From contig NZ_WHOL01000065.1 of NCBI RefSeq assembly GCF_009745975.1, forward strand, positions 62,001-126,000: a DNA stretch of 64,000 nt, given 5' to 3'. Positions 13,459 to 19,820 of this stretch are shown piece after piece (the first letter of the stretch is position 1; each line of letters opens with the position of its first letter). A program made the position numbers and the translations under genes. Under the pieces are notes generated by a model that did not search any database, was not told the origin of the DNA, and worked only from the letters and a program-made list of their open reading frames with translations. The DNA comes from Actinokineospora pegani. Its GTDB lineage: Bacteria; Actinomycetota; Actinomycetes; Mycobacteriales; Pseudonocardiaceae.

Positions 13459-13600
13459 GCGTGCTACTGGTGGAAAGGGGGTCATACTTCGTCGGCCGAT
13501 CTCCAGCGCTGGGCAACCTGGAATAGGGCTTTTCCTACTCAGCGTGCACACTGACTGGCTGACGCAGGCACGGCACGGGGTAAACAGAGAGCGGGACAGC

Positions 13601-16411
13601 GTGGCAGCGACTAAGAAGACTGCGGGCGGCGGGGGCGCCGAACCCAAGCGGCTGGTGATCGTGGAGTCGCCTGCGAAGGCGCGCAAGATCGCCTCCTACC
13701 TCGGGCGCAACTTCGTCGTCGAGTCGTCCCGGGGCCACATCCGCGACCTGCCGCGCAAGGCGGCCGAGGTGCCGGAGAAGTACAAGGGCGAGACGTGGTC
13801 CAACCTGGGCGTCAACGTCGACCACGGCTTCGAGCCCATCTACATCGTCACCCCGGACAAGAAGTCCACCGTGACCGAGCTCAAGGGCCTGCTCAAGGAC
13901 GTCGACGAGCTCTACCTCGCCACAGACGGCGACCGCGAGGGCGAGGCCATCGCCTGGCACCTGCTCGAAGCGCTCAAGCCCAAGGTGCCGGTGCGCCGGA
14001 TGGTCTTCCACGAGATCACCGAGCTCGCCATCCGCGCCGCCGCGCAGAACACCCGCGAGCTCGACCGCGACCTGGTCGACGCGCAGGAGACCCGCCGCAT
14101 CCTCGACCGCCTCTACGGCTACGAGGTCAGCCCGGTCCTGTGGAAGAAGGTCATGCCGCGGCTGTCGGCCGGCCGCGTCCAGTCGGTCGCGACCCGCATC
14201 GTGGTCCAGCGCGAGCGCGAGCGGATGGCCTTCGTCGCCGCGAGCTACTGGGACCTCTCCGCGACCATGGACGCGGGCAAGGAGGCCGAGCCGCCCACCT
14301 TCGCCTCCCGGCTGCTCTCGGTCGACGGCACCCGCCTGGCCACCGGCCGCGACTTCGGCCAGGACGGCAAGCTCAAGGCCGGGACCGACGTGCTGCTGGT
14401 CGACGAGGCCGAGGCGGGCAGGCTCAAGGCCGCCCTCGACGGCGCGCAGCTCACCGTCACCAGCGTCGAGGAGAAGCCCTACACCCGGCGCCCCTACGCG
14501 CCCTTCATGACCTCCACGCTGCAGCAGGAGGCGGGCCGCAAGCTGCGGTTCAGCTCCGACCGCACGATGCGCACCGCCCAGCGCCTGTACGAGAACGGCT
14601 ACATCACCTACATGCGGACCGACAGCACCACGCTGTCGGAGACCGCCATCGAGGCCGCCCGCTCGCAGGCCACCGACCTCTACGGCGCGCAGTTCGTGCA
14701 CCCGACCCCGCGGCAGTACACCCGCAAGGTCAAGAACGCCCAGGAGGCGCACGAGGCCATCCGCCCCGCCGGTGAGGTGTTCCGCACCCCCGGCCAGGTC
14801 GCGGGCGAGCTGGAGACCGACGAGTTCCGCCTCTACGAGCTGATCTGGCAGCGCACCATCGCCTCCCAGATGGCCGACGTGCGCGGCACCACCATGACCG
14901 TGCGGATCACCGGCAACGCCTCCTCCGGCGAGGAGTGCGTGTTCTCCTCCTCCGGCCGCACCATCACCTTCCCCGGCTTCCTGCGCGCCTACGTCGAGGC
15001 CGTGGACTCCGAGGAGGGCGGCGAGGCCGACGACGCCGAGCGCAGGCTGCCGATCCTGACCAAGGGCCACGCGGTCACCGCGACCGACCTGTCCGCCGAC
15101 GGGCACAGCACCAGCCCGCCGCCGCGCTACTCCGAGCCCAGCCTGGTCAAGGCGCTGGAGGACCTGGGCATCGGCCGCCCGTCCACCTACGCCTCGATCA
15201 TCAACACCATCCAGGACCGCGGCTACGTGTGGAAGAAGGGCTCCGCCCTGGTCCCGTCGTGGATCGCGTTCTCGGTGATCGGCCTGCTCGAGCAGCACTT
15301 CGAGCGGCTGGTCGACTACGACTTCACCGCCGCGATGGAGGAGGAGCTCGACGGCATCGCCGCGGGCACCCAGCAGCGCACCGACTGGCTGTCCGGCTTC
15401 TACTTCGGCGGCCAGGTCGGCCCGGACGGCTCGGTCGGCCGCTCCGGCGGGCTCAAGCAGCTCGTCGGCTCCGGCGTGGACAACATCGACGCCAAGATCG
15501 TCAACTCCATCCCGGTGTTCGACGACGCCGAGGGCCGCTCGGTCGTGGTGCGCGTCGGCCGCTACGGGCCCTACCTCGAGCGCGAGGTCGACAACGCGCC
15601 GCAGCGGGCCAACCTGCCCGAGGACCTGCCGCCGGACGAGCTGACCCTGGCGCTGGCCGAGGAGCTGTTCGCCACCCCGATGGAGGGCCGCAGCCTGGGC
15701 ACCGACCCGGTCAGCGGGCACGAGATCGTGGCGAAGGAGGGGCGCTACGGCCCCTACGTCACCGAGGTCCTCCCCGAGGAGGAGCCCCCGGCCGACGGCG
15801 CGAAGAAGACCAAGGCCAAGACCGCCAAGCCCAAGCCGCGCACCGGCTCGCTGTTCAAGTCGATGGCGCTGGACACGATCACCCTCGACGACGCGCTCAT
15901 GCTGCTGTCGCTGCCCCGCGTCGTGGGCGCCGACCCGGCCTCGGGCGACGAGATCACCGCGCAGAACGGCCGGTACGGGCCCTACCTGAAGAAGGGCACC
16001 GACTCGCGCTCGCTGACCAGCGAGGACCAGATCTTCACCGTCACCCTGGAGGAGGCGCTCAAGATCTACGCCGAACCCAAGCGCCGGGGCCGCCAGGCCG
16101 CCGCCGCGGTCCCGCCGCTGCGCGAGATGGGCGAGGACCCGGTGTCGAAGAAGCCCATGGTGGTCAAGGACGGCCGGTTCGGGCCGTACGTCACCGACGG
16201 CGAGACGAACGCGTCGCTGCGCAAGGCCGACAGCGTGGAGGAGCTCACCGACGAGCGGGCTTCCGAGCTGCTCGCCGAGCGCCGCGCCAAGGGGCCCGCG
16301 CCCAAGCGCACGACCAAGGCGCGTACCACGACGGCGAAGTCGACCACCGCCAAGTCCACGGCGGCCAAGAAGCCCCCGGCGAAGCGCACGACCGCCAAGT
16401 CGAAGGGCTGA
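13601..16411 (+). CDS. topA: DNA topoisomerase I
   Basis: This type IA topoisomerase relaxes negative supercoils. In its 936 residues the Toprim strand IVESPAKA lies at about residue 19, the metal-binding DGDREGE at about 109, and the catalytic tyrosine in YMRTDSTTL at about 337. Actinobacterial TopA lacks zinc fingers. Here the C-terminus instead has repeated GRYGPY/GRFGPY modules and a Lys/Ala/Thr-rich tail (KSTTAKSTAAKKPPAKR). I chose the GTG at 13601, with GAGCGGGA upstream; an in-frame start at 13544 would add 19 atypical residues. Confidence 0.96.
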   Translation: MAATKKTAGGGGAEPKRLVIVESPAKARKIASYLGRNFVVESSRGHIRDLPRKAAEVPEKYKGETWSNLGVNVDHGFEPIYIVTPDKKSTVTELKGLLKDVDELYLATDGDREGEAIAWHLLEALKPKVPVRRMVFHEITELAIRAAAQNTRELDRDLVDAQETRRILDRLYGYEVSPVLWKKVMPRLSAGRVQSVATRIVVQRERERMAFVAASYWDLSATMDAGKEAEPPTFASRLLSVDGTRLATGRDFGQDGKLKAGTDVLLVDEAEAGRLKAALDGAQLTVTSVEEKPYTRRPYAPFMTSTLQQEAGRKLRFSSDRTMRTAQRLYENGYITYMRTDSTTLSETAIEAARSQATDLYGAQFVHPTPRQYTRKVKNAQEAHEAIRPAGEVFRTPGQVAGELETDEFRLYELIWQRTIASQMADVRGTTMTVRITGNASSGEECVFSSSGRTITFPGFLRAYVEAVDSEEGGEADDAERRLPILTKGHAVTATDLSADGHSTSPPPRYSEPSLVKALEDLGIGRPSTYASIINTIQDRGYVWKKGSALVPSWIAFSVIGLLEQHFERLVDYDFTAAMEEELDGIAAGTQQRTDWLSGFYFGGQVGPDGSVGRSGGLKQLVGSGVDNIDAKIVNSIPVFDDAEGRSVVVRVGRYGPYLEREVDNAPQRANLPEDLPPDELTLALAEELFATPMEGRSLGTDPVSGHEIVAKEGRYGPYVTEVLPEEEPPADGAKKTKAKTAKPKPRTGSLFKSMALDTITLDDALMLLSLPRVVGADPASGDEITAQNGRYGPYLKKGTDSRSLTSEDQIFTVTLEEALKIYAEPKRRGRQAAAAVPPLREMGEDPVSKKPMVVKDGRFGPYVTDGETNASLRKADSVEELTDERASELLAERRAKGPAPKRTTKARTTTAKSTTAKSTAAKKPPAKRTTAKSKG

Positions 16412-16543: not shown

Positions 16544-18607
16544 GTGGGTGACATCAGCGGCGACGGGGAGACCGGGGGCTCGAGCGGGGACACGGCCGGG
16601 GGCTCGATGGCGGCCAGGGCGCGCAGCGTGTTGTCCATCCGACCGTTCCGCAGGCTGTGGGGCGTCACGTTCCTGTGCAGCATGGGCGACTGGATGACGC
16701 TGCTCGCGCTCAGCGGGTTCGTCACCAAGCTCACCGAGGACTACAAGGCGCAGAGCTTCGCCTTCGCGGGCGTCGTGCTGACCCAGTTGCTGCCCGGCCT
16801 GCTGTTCGCCCCGATCGGCGGCCTGTTCGCCGACCGGTTCGACCGGCGCAAGGTGATGGCGTTCGCCGACGTCGGCCGGGCGCTGCTGCTGGTGTCGATC
16901 GTCGTCGTCGGGTCGCCGATCTGGCTGTTCGCGGGCAACTTCCTGGTCGGCTGCTGCGCGCTGCTGTGGATCCCGTCCAAGGACGCCGCGGTGCCCAACC
17001 TGCTGCGCCGCCCCGACCAGGTGGAGACGGCCAACCAGCTCGGCCTGGTGATGACCTACGGCATCTCGGTCGTGTCCGGCGCAGGCCTCTACGCGCTGAT
17101 CACCGGCGTCAGCAACAACCTGAGCCTGTCCTTCGACGACACCGGCCTGGGCATCGTCAAGGTCATCCTGTTCTTGATCGCCGCGCTCTACCTGACCAGC
17201 GCCATCCTGATCGCCACCCGCATCCCGGAGCTGTCCGGGCGCGCGTCCGCGCCCAAGGCCGACGCCGAGGACGACAAGCCCGCGCACTCGGGCTTCCTGG
17301 CGATGATCCGCGACGCCGGCCGGTTCGTGCGCACCACCCCGATGGTCCGCGGCCTGCTCATCGGGATGCTCGGCGCGATCGCGGCGGCGGGCGCCCTTGT
17401 CGGCTCCGCACAGGCCTACGCCAACAGCATGCTCGGCGGCGACGCCACCTTCGGCCTGCTGTTCGTCGCGCTGTTCGTCGGCCTGGTGTCGGGGATGACC
17501 GGATCGCCCAAGCTGGTGCAGCGGTTGCCGCGCAACCGGATGTTCGGCATCGCCATCGTCGTGGCCGGGTTCTCGCTGTTCATGTTGGCACTGGCCCCGC
17601 ACCCGGTGGTGGCGCTGCCGTTCGTGCTGCTGCTCGGCGCCTGCGCCGGGGCGGCGTTCCTGACCGGTGTGACGATCATCGGCACCGAGATCGACGACTC
17701 GGTGCGCGGCCGGATCAACGCGATCTACCAGTCGATGATGAAGGTCGTGCTGGCCGGGGCGATGGCGCTGACCCCGGTGCTGGTCGGCCTGGTCCGCCCG
17801 CACTCGATCACGCTGTTCGGCCGCGAGATGATCGTCGACGGCACCCGGCCGGTGCTGCTCGGCGCGGGCGTGCTGGCGACCCTGGTCGGGATAGTGGCCT
17901 ACCGGCAGATGGACGACCGGCGCACCGAGAGCATCCTGGCCGACCTGCGCTCCGCGGTCCGCGGCAAGTCGCGCAGCGGCAGCGGCCTGCTCATCGCCGT
18001 CGAGGGCAACACCCACTTCGACACCGCCACCCAGGCCAACCGCCTCGCCGACTGGCTGCGCGGACCCGGTCGCAAAGAGGTCCTGCTGGCCACCGACCCG
18101 GTCCTCGACGACGCCAAGCTGCGCGCCGTGCTCAGCGGGGCGCAGCTATCCTCGGCCCGCGCGCACGCCCTGGTCGCCGCCGCCGTGCGCGCCGACCTGG
18201 TCGAACGCGAGATCCGACCCGCGCTGGACCGGGGCGCGCTGGTCGTCATGGAGCGCTTCGTCGACAGCCCGCTGGCGCACCTGTCCACCGCGGCCGACCT
18301 CGACGCCGCCGAGCTGGAGGGCCTGGCCAACTGGGCGACCTCCCGGCTGCGCCCGGACATCACCCTGCTGCTCGACCGCGACCCGGCCACCCTGCCGCCG
18401 CGGCCCGGCAGCGCCCGCCACCACTGGCACGTCCAGGGCGTCCTCGCCGACATGGCCGCCGCCGACCCCGACCGCTACGTCGTGGTCGACGGGGACGGCA
18501 CGGTCGAGGAGGTCGCGCACCGGGTCAGCGCCGCGGTCTACGTGGCCCTGGTGACCCGCGGGGTGCCGGGCTTCGCCGAGGACGAACCGGCCAAGGTCGA
18601 CGCCTGA
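16544..18607 (+). CDS. MFS transporter fused to a thymidylate-kinase-like domain lacking its P-loop
   Basis: The first 450 residues or so form a 12-helix major facilitator, with GGLFADRFDRRKVMAFADV as the loop 2-3 signature. A C-terminal domain from about residue 480 resembles dTMP kinase: LLIAVEGN, a TDP segment, ERFVDSPLAHL (the DRY-type motif) and PDITLLLDRDP. Where active TMP kinases have the GxxxxGKST P-loop, this reads GNTHFDTATQ, so ATP binding is doubtful. The gene directly precedes holB, the usual tmk neighbour. The start is uncertain (GTG 16517, GTG 16544 or ATG 16607). Automated annotation may call it a bifunctional MFS/dTMP kinase; I would call the kinase half degenerate. Confidence 0.85.
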   Translation: MGDISGDGETGGSSGDTAGGSMAARARSVLSIRPFRRLWGVTFLCSMGDWMTLLALSGFVTKLTEDYKAQSFAFAGVVLTQLLPGLLFAPIGGLFADRFDRRKVMAFADVGRALLLVSIVVVGSPIWLFAGNFLVGCCALLWIPSKDAAVPNLLRRPDQVETANQLGLVMTYGISVVSGAGLYALITGVSNNLSLSFDDTGLGIVKVILFLIAALYLTSAILIATRIPELSGRASAPKADAEDDKPAHSGFLAMIRDAGRFVRTTPMVRGLLIGMLGAIAAAGALVGSAQAYANSMLGGDATFGLLFVALFVGLVSGMTGSPKLVQRLPRNRMFGIAIVVAGFSLFMLALAPHPVVALPFVLLLGACAGAAFLTGVTIIGTEIDDSVRGRINAIYQSMMKVVLAGAMALTPVLVGLVRPHSITLFGREMIVDGTRPVLLGAGVLATLVGIVAYRQMDDRRTESILADLRSAVRGKSRSGSGLLIAVEGNTHFDTATQANRLADWLRGPGRKEVLLATDPVLDDAKLRAVLSGAQLSSARAHALVAAAVRADLVEREIRPALDRGALVVMERFVDSPLAHLSTAADLDAAELEGLANWATSRLRPDITLLLDRDPATLPPRPGSARHHWHVQGVLADMAAADPDRYVVVDGDGTVEEVAHRVSAAVYVALVTRGVPGFAEDEPAKVDA

Positions 18608-18629
18608 CCCGGCGTTAGGGTCTTTCGTT

Positions 18630-19820
18630 GTGAGCGTGTGGTCCCAGGTCGTCGGTCAGCCCGACGCTGTCGCTGTGCTCGAAGCCGCCTCGGCAGCCGC
18701 CCGCGCGGTGGTGGCGGGGGAGCCGGTGGCCTCGGGGATGACCCACGCCTGGCTGTTCACCGGCCCGCCCGGGTCCGGCCGGTCGACGGCGGCCAGGGCG
18801 TTCGCGGCCGCGTTGCAGTGCACGACGCCCGGCGAGCCGGGGTGCGGGCAGTGCCAGGGCTGCCACACGGCGCTGTCGGGCACGCACGCCGACGTGCGGC
18901 TGGTCGTGCCGGAGGGCTTGTCGATCTCGGTCGCCGAGATGCGCGCCCTCGTGCAGACCTCCGCGCGGCGCCCCACCGGCGGCCGCTGGCAGGTCGTGAT
19001 CATCGCCGACGCCGACCGGCTCACCGAGGGCGCGGCCAACGCCCTGCTCAAGGCGGTCGAGGAACCCCCGGAGCGGACCGTCTTCCTGCTCTGCGCCCCC
19101 TCCGACCACCCCGACGACGTGTCGGTCACCATCCGCTCCCGCTGCCGGGCCATCGGCCTGCGCACCCCGGCCCCCGCCGCCATCGCCGCCGTCCTGCGCC
19201 AGCGCGACGGCATGGACGAGGAAACCGCCACCTGGGCCGCCTCCGTCTGCGGCGGCCACGTCGGCCGGGCCCGCCGCCTCGCCACCGACCCCGAGGCCCG
19301 CGACCGCCGGGCCAAGGTCCTCCGCATCCCCCTCAACCTCCGCCGCCTCTCCGACGTCTTCGACGCAGCGGACGACCTGGTCAAAGCCGCCGAGACGGAC
19401 GCGGTGGCGGCAGGCGCGGGCCGGGACGAGGCGGAGAAGGACGCCCTCAAGACGGCCCTGGGCCACGGCGGCACCGGCAAGGGCGCGGGCACCGCCACCC
19501 GCGGCAGCGCGGGCGCCATCAAGGAACTGGAGAAGCGCCAGAAGTCCCGCGCCACCCGCACCCAGCGCGACGCCCTGGACCTGGCCCTGATCGACCTGGC
19601 CGCGTTCTACCGCGACGTCCTGGTGACCCAGGCGGGCGCGCCCGCGACGCTGAACCACCCGGACCAGGCCACCGCCTCGAGCCAGGCCGCGGCGATGTGG
19701 ACCCCGGAGTCGACCCTGCGCCGCCTCGAGGCCATCCTCGGCTGCCGGGAGGCCCTGGAACAGAACGTGAAACCCCGCATCGCCGTCGAGGCGATGATCA
19801 CCGCCCTCCACATGGGCTAG
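18630..19820 (+). CDS. holB: DNA polymerase III subunit delta' (clamp loader)
   Basis: The 396-residue protein is the delta' AAA+-fold clamp-loader subunit. It starts SVWSQVVGQPDAV and has a P-loop in which lysine is replaced by arginine (GPPGSGRST), as expected for a subunit that does not hydrolyse ATP. It also has a zinc cluster CGQCQGC, the sensor-like ALLKAVEEPP, and SRC. A Gly/Ala-rich insert near residues 275-295 is unremarkable. The GTG start lies 22 bp after the MFS-fusion gene, so the two probably form one transcript. Confidence 0.93.
   Translation: MSVWSQVVGQPDAVAVLEAASAAARAVVAGEPVASGMTHAWLFTGPPGSGRSTAARAFAAALQCTTPGEPGCGQCQGCHTALSGTHADVRLVVPEGLSISVAEMRALVQTSARRPTGGRWQVVIIADADRLTEGAANALLKAVEEPPERTVFLLCAPSDHPDDVSVTIRSRCRAIGLRTPAPAAIAAVLRQRDGMDEETATWAASVCGGHVGRARRLATDPEARDRRAKVLRIPLNLRRLSDVFDAADDLVKAAETDAVAAGAGRDEAEKDALKTALGHGGTGKGAGTATRGSAGAIKELEKRQKSRATRTQRDALDLALIDLAAFYRDVLVTQAGAPATLNHPDQATASSQAAAMWTPESTLRRLEAILGCREALEQNVKPRIAVEAMITALHMG

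What the first reader, a model, noticed from the sequence alone, without database searches (positions are those of the whole stretch)
16544..19820. MFS transporter fused to a thymidylate-kinase domain with a destroyed P-loop, in the tmk position before holB
Many bacteria have tmk next to holB. Here a TMPK-like domain is fused to a 12-helix MFS transporter just upstream of holB, and its ATP loop reads GNTHFDTATQ instead of GxxxxGKST. Other TMPK strands are kept. This suggests a former kinase turned into a nucleotide-binding or scaffolding domain on a transporter. Automated labels such as 'bifunctional MFS/dTMP kinase' would then mislead.
Basis: partly seen in the sequence, partly recalled or inferred. 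Interest (0 to 1): 0.6.

Follow-up and report, generated by a model that had tools for sequence, protein, structure and literature searches.

The report
Transporter carrying a dead thymidylate-kinase domain
In one bacterial family a membrane transporter still carries a former DNA-building-block enzyme that has lost its active site yet is preserved by selection, while a second, intact enzyme elsewhere in the genome can do the original job.

Summary
Window 16607-18604 (+) encodes a 12-helix MFS transporter fused to a thymidylate-kinase (TMPK) fold, between topA and holB, with GNTHFDTATQ where the P-loop should be. The genome (genus Actinokineospora, Pseudonocardiaceae) has an intact stand-alone dTMP kinase between sahH and mtrA, orthologous to the M. 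tuberculosis enzyme. Of 105 distinct family sequences with the domain, none has the P-loop lysine, the base-stacking aromatic or the LID motif; in 37 related fusions the lysine is always present (20 of these were picked from strong TMPK matches). At least two independent losses are inferred; in the genomes checked, another intact tmk accompanies them. In Pseudonocardiaceae the dead domain is under purifying selection like that on active kinases (median dN/dS 0.20 vs 0.25); in another family (f4) the dead domain is decaying (0.76), a built-in control. Best reading: a pseudoenzyme domain kept as a cytoplasmic structural, perhaps dimerising or regulatory, part of the transporter. Loss of kinase function is very likely; the present role is inferred. 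The gene is dispensable: 3 of 37 family genomes lack it and 2 keep only the transporter half.

The parts
13544..16411 (+). topA, DNA topoisomerase I (upstream neighbour)
   Evidence: TIGR01051 816.4 bits
16607..18604 (+). MFS transporter / pseudo-thymidylate-kinase fusion, 666 aa
16634..17911 (+). MFS domain, residues 10-435, 12 long predicted helices; motif ADRFDRRK near-invariant in the family
   Evidence: Pfam MFS_3/MFS_1; helices in the AF2 model; conserved columns
17978..18526 (+). pseudo-TMPK domain, residues 458-640
   Evidence: Pfam; domain model matches solved TMPKs at Z up to 17.8
18005..18034 (+). destroyed P-loop, residues 467-476 GNTHFDTATQ; family pattern EG-x-T-x-x-[DNE]-T-x-x-Q
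18089..18100 (+). residues 495-498 ATDP where intact relatives have TREP(G) (dTMP-site loop changed)
18155..18229 (+). helix alpha3, residues 517-541, among the most conserved stretches; Arg528 kept, aromatic of intact relatives replaced by Ala524, Asp527 replaced by Val
18251..18259 (+). residues 549-551 ERF in place of DRY/DRF; Arg550 kept
18377..18430 (+). LID region, residues 591-608, DR(L/I/M/V)E motif absent
18630..19820 (+). holB, DNA polymerase III delta prime (downstream neighbour, 22 bases after the fusion's stop codon)
   Evidence: NF005926 547.6 bits

Best explanation
The ancestor of this gene was an MFS-dTMP kinase fusion with an intact kinase in the topA-holB slot, as still seen in many Actinomycetota. 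In the Pseudonocardiaceae lineage a second dTMP kinase (the M. tuberculosis type, beside sahH and mtrA) is present and presumably took over. The fused kinase then lost ATP- and dTMP-site residues, and the remaining fold was kept and re-optimised as a cytoplasmic structural part of the transporter. Most likely it packs or dimerises through the retained core helices, with an Asp/Asn-Thr-x-x-Gln cap in place of the ATP phosphate at the start of the first helix, and so stabilises or regulates the MFS part. Shown by computation: loss of active-site residues, retention of the predicted fold, a second intact kinase gene, purifying selection, at least two losses. Inferred: loss of catalysis, order of events, scaffold or dimer role. 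Unknown: the transported substrate.
For: P-loop Lys in 0 of 105 distinct f1 sequences against 37 of 37 intact relatives (17 of these unselected, 20 picked from strong TMPK matches). At the last P-loop Gly, Asp/Glu/Asn in 103 of 105; Thr for Lys in 99; Gln476 in 104. Aromatic at 524 in 0 of 105 vs 37 of 37; Tyr-Gln 558-559 in 0 vs 37; LID DR[LIMV]E in 0 vs 35; EPG string in 5 vs 37. Fold kept in the model: Z 17.8, 3.3 A over 181 residues to Aquifex TMPK 2pbr; pLDDT 80.8, pTM 0.80. Own genome has an intact tmk, E 5.9e-57 to M. tuberculosis Tmk chain 1g3u, 268.7 bits vs cut-off 193 for NF005923. Mtb-type tmk in 36 of 37 f1 genomes. In one search NF005923 passes its cut-off in 10 of 39 genomes, all f1, f4 or f8, and in 0 of the 21 with an intact fused kinase. 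Disjoint close pairs: f1 median dN/dS TMPK 0.198, MFS 0.230 (50 pairs); intact TMPK 0.253 (15); f4 dead TMPK 0.760 (5). Newly conserved residues in f1 include E533 (103 of 105), R534 (101), R639 (105). The MFS tree needs 2 changes of state.
Against: No assay. R528 and R550, which align with conserved arginines of intact TMPKs, are each kept in 103 of 105 sequences, which a pure scaffold need not keep. The loss is not uniform at every site: Asp549 remains in 15 of 105 and Ser/Thr474 in 39 of 105. At MFS identity 45-55% the dead domain is less conserved than intact ones (50.9 vs 61.7% identity). Two f1 genomes (G017, G034) keep the MFS without the TMPK domain and three (G020, G027, G028) have no match to the gene, so the domain is not essential. 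NG86 dN/dS is biased at over 70% GC; only comparisons between groups are used. G026 (74% complete) has a dead fusion and no Mtb-type tmk found. The dimer role rests on recalled knowledge of TMPK dimers.
Confidence: 0.6

Rival explanations
1. The dead kinase domain is a ligand sensor: it still binds a small anion or nucleotide through Arg528 and Arg550 and gates the transporter, without ATP chemistry.
For: R528 and R550 are each kept in 103 of 105 f1 sequences; in the decaying f4 domains R528 is Leu in 11 of 11 and R550 remains in 1 of 11. New conserved charged residues appear in f1.
Against: The aromatic at 524 and the Tyr-Gln pair are gone in 105 of 105 and the EPG string in 100 of 105, so dTMP itself is a poor candidate. 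R528 is also kept in f3 (5 of 5), where R550 remains in 1 of 5. The arginines could be structural.
Confidence: 0.25
2. The domain is a decaying relic with no function.
For: Lost in 2 of the 34 f1 genomes that have the gene, and the gene unmatched in 3 of 37. In family f4 the same domain is decaying, and 5 of 16 genomes had no match to the fusion.
Against: In f1 the domain is about as conserved as the transporter half, median dN/dS 0.198, and new conserved positions have arisen.
Confidence: 0.08
3. The fused domain still makes dTDP by unusual chemistry, without a P-loop lysine.
For: The Arg of the DR motif is kept, and some intact-looking fused kinases tolerate P-loop variation (GKGT in f27).
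Against: f27 keeps the lysine; here Lys, P-loop glycines, aromatic, base contacts and LID motif are lost together, and another intact dTMP kinase gene is present.
Confidence: 0.03

Closest known systems
Fused MFS transporter / dTMP kinase of other Actinomycetota (Streptomyces SCO3542 recalled as an example)
   Same: Same domain order; topA and holB beside it in most loci whose flanks reach that far. P-loop Lys in 37 of 37 order-level relatives (20 of them picked) and in 36 of 36 further phylum rows aligned
   Different: There P-loop, EPG and base-contact residues are present and the fused kinase is the main or only TMPK found; here these are lost and a second tmk exists
Mycobacterium tuberculosis-type dTMP kinase (NF005923; PDB 1g3u)
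   Same: Present in this genome at C98 between sahH and mtrA
   Different: It is the intact enzyme and a separate gene; the fused domain is nearer to Thermus/Aquifex-type TMPKs
Pseudoenzymes in general (recalled)
   Same: Fold retained, catalytic residues lost, own conservation pattern
   Different: A pseudo-TMPK fused to a transporter did not turn up in the listings of the papers searched

Membership tests
Thymidylate kinase (active enzyme) | TMPK fold | tested here: met
   The 50 PDB entries listed by VIA-align are all TMPKs, Z 16.2-17.8 (predicted model)
Thymidylate kinase (active enzyme) | P-loop GxxxxGK[ST] | tested here: not met
   GNTHFDTATQ in the window; Lys in 0 of 105 family members
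Thymidylate kinase (active enzyme) | DR[YF] motif and EPG dTMP-site loop (motif roles recalled) | tested here: not met
   ERF and ATDP in the window; in the family Arg550 is kept in 103 of 105, Asp549 in 15, the EPG string in 5
Thymidylate kinase (active enzyme) | LID arginine motif DR[LIMV]E (recalled) | tested here: not met
   0 of 105 f1, 35 of 37 intact relatives
Thymidylate kinase (active enzyme) | NCBI equivalog score TIGR00041 >= 83.25 bits | tested here: not met
   41.7 bits for the window; two intact fused relatives score 176.9 and 173.4
Thymidylate kinase (active enzyme) | dTMP phosphorylation | not testable with these tools
   needs an assay
MFS transporter (MFS_3/DHA3-like) | 12 transmembrane helices in two six-helix halves, MFS profile | tested here: met
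   Pfam MFS_3 78 bits; AF2 helices and MFS matches in PDB
MFS transporter (MFS_3/DHA3-like) | Known substrate or subfamily | tested here: inconclusive
   The window's NCBIfam transporter matches are all far under their cut-offs
M. tuberculosis-type dTMP kinase (second gene, C98) | NF005923 over its cut-off of 193 bits; intact P-loop | tested here: met
   268.7 bits; EGVDGAGKRT

The most novel reading that the evidence does not exclude
A transporter gated by a repurposed, catalytically dead nucleotide-kinase domain that senses a metabolite through the former dTMP pocket (Arg528/Arg550). It would have arisen in Pseudonocardiaceae after a second dTMP kinase freed the fused one, with an independent parallel loss in the f3/f4 lineage.
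Probability: 0.2. Interest if true: 0.65.

Novelty: new variant of a known kind. Interest (0 to 1): 0.46.

Why it matters
It is a natural experiment in gene displacement: an essential enzyme fused to a transporter loses its active site more than once, in genomes where another copy of the enzyme is present. One lineage then keeps and reshapes the dead domain while another lets it decay. It warns that domain-based labels (Pfam Thymidylate_kin) would credit these genomes with a dTMP kinase that the fusion probably is not. It offers a testable way to learn what the topA-holB MFS transporter, widespread in Actinomycetota, does and why it was fused to dTMP kinase.

Tried and rejected
Sequencing error or frameshift: rejected, 105 distinct sequences agree. 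One shared ancestral loss: the MFS tree of 67 chosen rows (15 of 34 f1, 5 of 5 f3, 7 of 11 f4) needs 2 changes, with a 99* branch that sets f1 and 19 intact rows apart from f3+f4 (quick method, SH-aLRT only; the AU test was not run). The TMPK-domain tree is poorly resolved, with long branches, and was not used for the number of losses. A first regex suggested that five f27 members also lack the P-loop; alignment showed GKGT with the lysine kept, and each has that kinase as its only TMPK match. dN/dS over all pairs was set aside as saturated and GC-biased; disjoint close pairs were used. Substrate by homology: no NCBIfam transporter model passes its cut-off for the window; Foldseek's best are Spns2, NupG and other MFS at 10-18% identity, not informative. 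Literature: seven searches for the fusion or a pseudo-TMPK showed nothing on it (listings only). SCO3542 occurs once, as the table entry 'Putative thymidine kinase' in PMC3897704 (one passage seen). PMC3711429 lists a thymidylate kinase translational-coupling cluster (two passages seen) with no link to MFS in those passages.

Rows dropped or unresolved: G049's contig ends inside the TMPK domain and is left out of the 37. Of those 37, 20 were picked from strong TMPK matches with long open frames, so only the 17 are an unselected sample. Loci repeat some G-handle genomes, so counts use 107 distinct sequences (105 with at least 121 of 183 domain columns filled); the identity comparison was made before that clean-up (114 rows). 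L195, L196 and L207 had neither topA nor holB in the held flanks; L207 holds masked bases. The match list was cut. Of f4, only G039 and G054 had their second tmk typed. Of one search's 37 foreign fusion-spanning rows, 36 were aligned (G362 not fetched).

Full report
What is there. Window 16607-18604 (+) is one open frame of 666 aa from ATG 16607. Residues 9-397 match MFS_3; residues 475-596 match Thymidylate_kin with 42.6 bits, the match starting at profile position 11, after the P-loop. AlphaFold2 (A2, 62 sequences, pLDDT 81.7) gives two groups of six long helices and then an alpha/beta domain. The domain alone (pLDDT 80.8, pTM 0.80) matches thymidylate kinases in all 50 PDB entries listed, Z up to 17.8, 3.3 A over 181 residues. 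topA lies before it and holB after it, 22 bases from the stop codon.

Second kinase. The window's genome (6.44 Mb, 128 contigs, 99% complete) has three TMPK matches: the window's; a 239-aa stand-alone gene between sahH and mtrA with P-loop EGVDGAGKRT, orthologous to M. tuberculosis Tmk (1g3u, E 5.9e-57; NF005923 268.7 bits, cut-off 193); and a third TMPK-like gene on C104 beside a radical-SAM-like ORF (name inferred from its sequence), whose role was not studied. So dTMP phosphorylation need not depend on the fusion.

How general. Among 61 genomes, family f1 (37 genomes) has the gene in 34; 32 have the TMPK domain, all without a P-loop lysine. Eighty named loci (Actinokineospora, Amycolatopsis, Lentzea, Saccharothrix, Pseudonocardia and others; Pseudonocardiaceae by recalled taxonomy, but for one record titled Rhodococcus rhodnii) also have no lysine, 80 of 80. 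Pooled and de-duplicated: 107 distinct sequences, 105 with the domain, 0 with the lysine; 37 of 37 complete relatives outside f1, f3 and f4 have it, 17 of them an unselected sample and 20 picked from strong TMPK matches. holB was found in 77 of 80 named loci and topA in 55 of 80; flanks were at most 4 kb. Across the phylum 103 of 148 genomes match an intact fusion query, many only in the TMPK part; 36 of 36 fusion rows aligned keep the lysine. In two f55 loci the MFS and tmk are separate neighbouring matches between topA and holB, in two f26 loci the MFS stands there alone, and nine f16 loci (genera g58, g60, g70) have a stand-alone tmk before holB with no MFS match in the held DNA.

Dead kinases and second kinases go together. 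Mtb-type tmk was found in 36 of 37 f1 genomes; the exception G026 is 74% complete and has another TMPK-like gene with an intact P-loop. In one search NF005923 passes its cut-off in 10 of 39 genomes: 6 of 7 f1, 2 of 2 f4, 2 of 2 f8 (no fusion matched there), 0 of 21 with an intact fused kinase, 0 of 5 f3 and 0 of 2 with the stand-alone f16 gene. In f3 the dead fusion is followed by an intact tmk and then holB in 5 of 5 genomes. In f4, 11 of 16 genomes matched the dead fusion; 16 of 16 f3/f4 fusions lack the lysine. The MFS tree of 67 chosen rows puts f1 in one clade and f3+f4 in another, so two losses are the fewest.

What was lost and kept. Comparing 105 f1 with 37 intact sequences: lost are the P-loop glycines and Lys, the aromatic at 524 (now Ala in 101), Asp527, the Tyr558-Gln559 pair, Arg563 and the LID motif; the EPG string remains in 5, Asp549 in 15 and Ser/Thr474 in 39. 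Kept are Glu466-Gly467, Gln476, most of helix alpha3, Arg528, Arg550, Trp576 and core-strand residues. Gained at 90% or more are, among others, Glu533, Arg534, Glu569, Glu571, Arg582 and Arg639. Roles given to single residues are recalled from known TMPK structures.

Selection. At similar transporter divergence (MFS identity 55-65%) the dead f1 domain shows 59.8% identity against 64.9% for intact ones; at 45-55% it is 50.9 against 61.7, so some relaxation relative to active kinases is visible. The dead f4 domain has only 40.8% at MFS identity 65-75%, where f1 has 68.1. Over disjoint close pairs, median dN/dS for the TMPK part is 0.198 in f1 (50 pairs), 0.253 in intact (15), 0.760 in f4 (5); f3 has one pair only (0.240). 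So the f1 domain is maintained while f4's decays.

How it most likely works. A fused kinase that was displaced lost catalysis; in Pseudonocardiaceae the fold was kept as a cytoplasmic domain of the transporter. The Asp/Asn-Thr-x-x-Gln motif at the start of helix 1 reads like a helix cap in place of the bound ATP phosphate, and the model starts that helix at residue 470. The conserved alpha3 helix is where I recall TMPK dimers pack, hence the dimer/scaffold proposal. These steps are inference. A sensor using Arg528/Arg550 is the main rival. The transporter's substrate is unknown.

Novelty. MFS-dTMP kinase fusions are widespread; a family-wide dead version under selection did not turn up in the papers searched. 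I rate it a new variant of a known kind, of moderate interest.

Noticed in passing
L001 (G000:C104:7784-11233): A third TMPK-like gene with an intact P-loop lies beside a B12/radical-SAM-like ORF (name inferred from sequence); extra high-scoring TMPK matches occur in several relatives. Possibly part of a biosynthetic cluster.
   Followed up: no
L146 (JOAA01000018.1, titled Rhodococcus rhodnii NRRL B-16535): Carries a dead fusion with motifs like those of the Actinocrispum and Actinosynnema loci, while the two f8 genomes (taken to be Mycobacteriaceae) had no fusion match; the record's name may be wrong.
   Followed up: no
L074 (G024:C4): A second, TMPK-less copy of the MFS half exists in one f1 genome.
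   Followed up: no
L301, L302 (f55) and L303, L304 (f26): Same topA-holB slot with MFS and tmk as separate neighbouring genes, or with the MFS alone: states before or after fusion.
   Followed up: partly
L086, L088, L227-L231 (f3): Arrangement MFS-dead TMPK fusion, intact tmk, holB.
   Followed up: partly
L195 (Kibdelosporangium philippinense): A copy without topA or holB in the held flanks has a further decayed motif (EGRDPYAVNLQ, Arg550 lost), perhaps a relocated paralogue.
   Followed up: no
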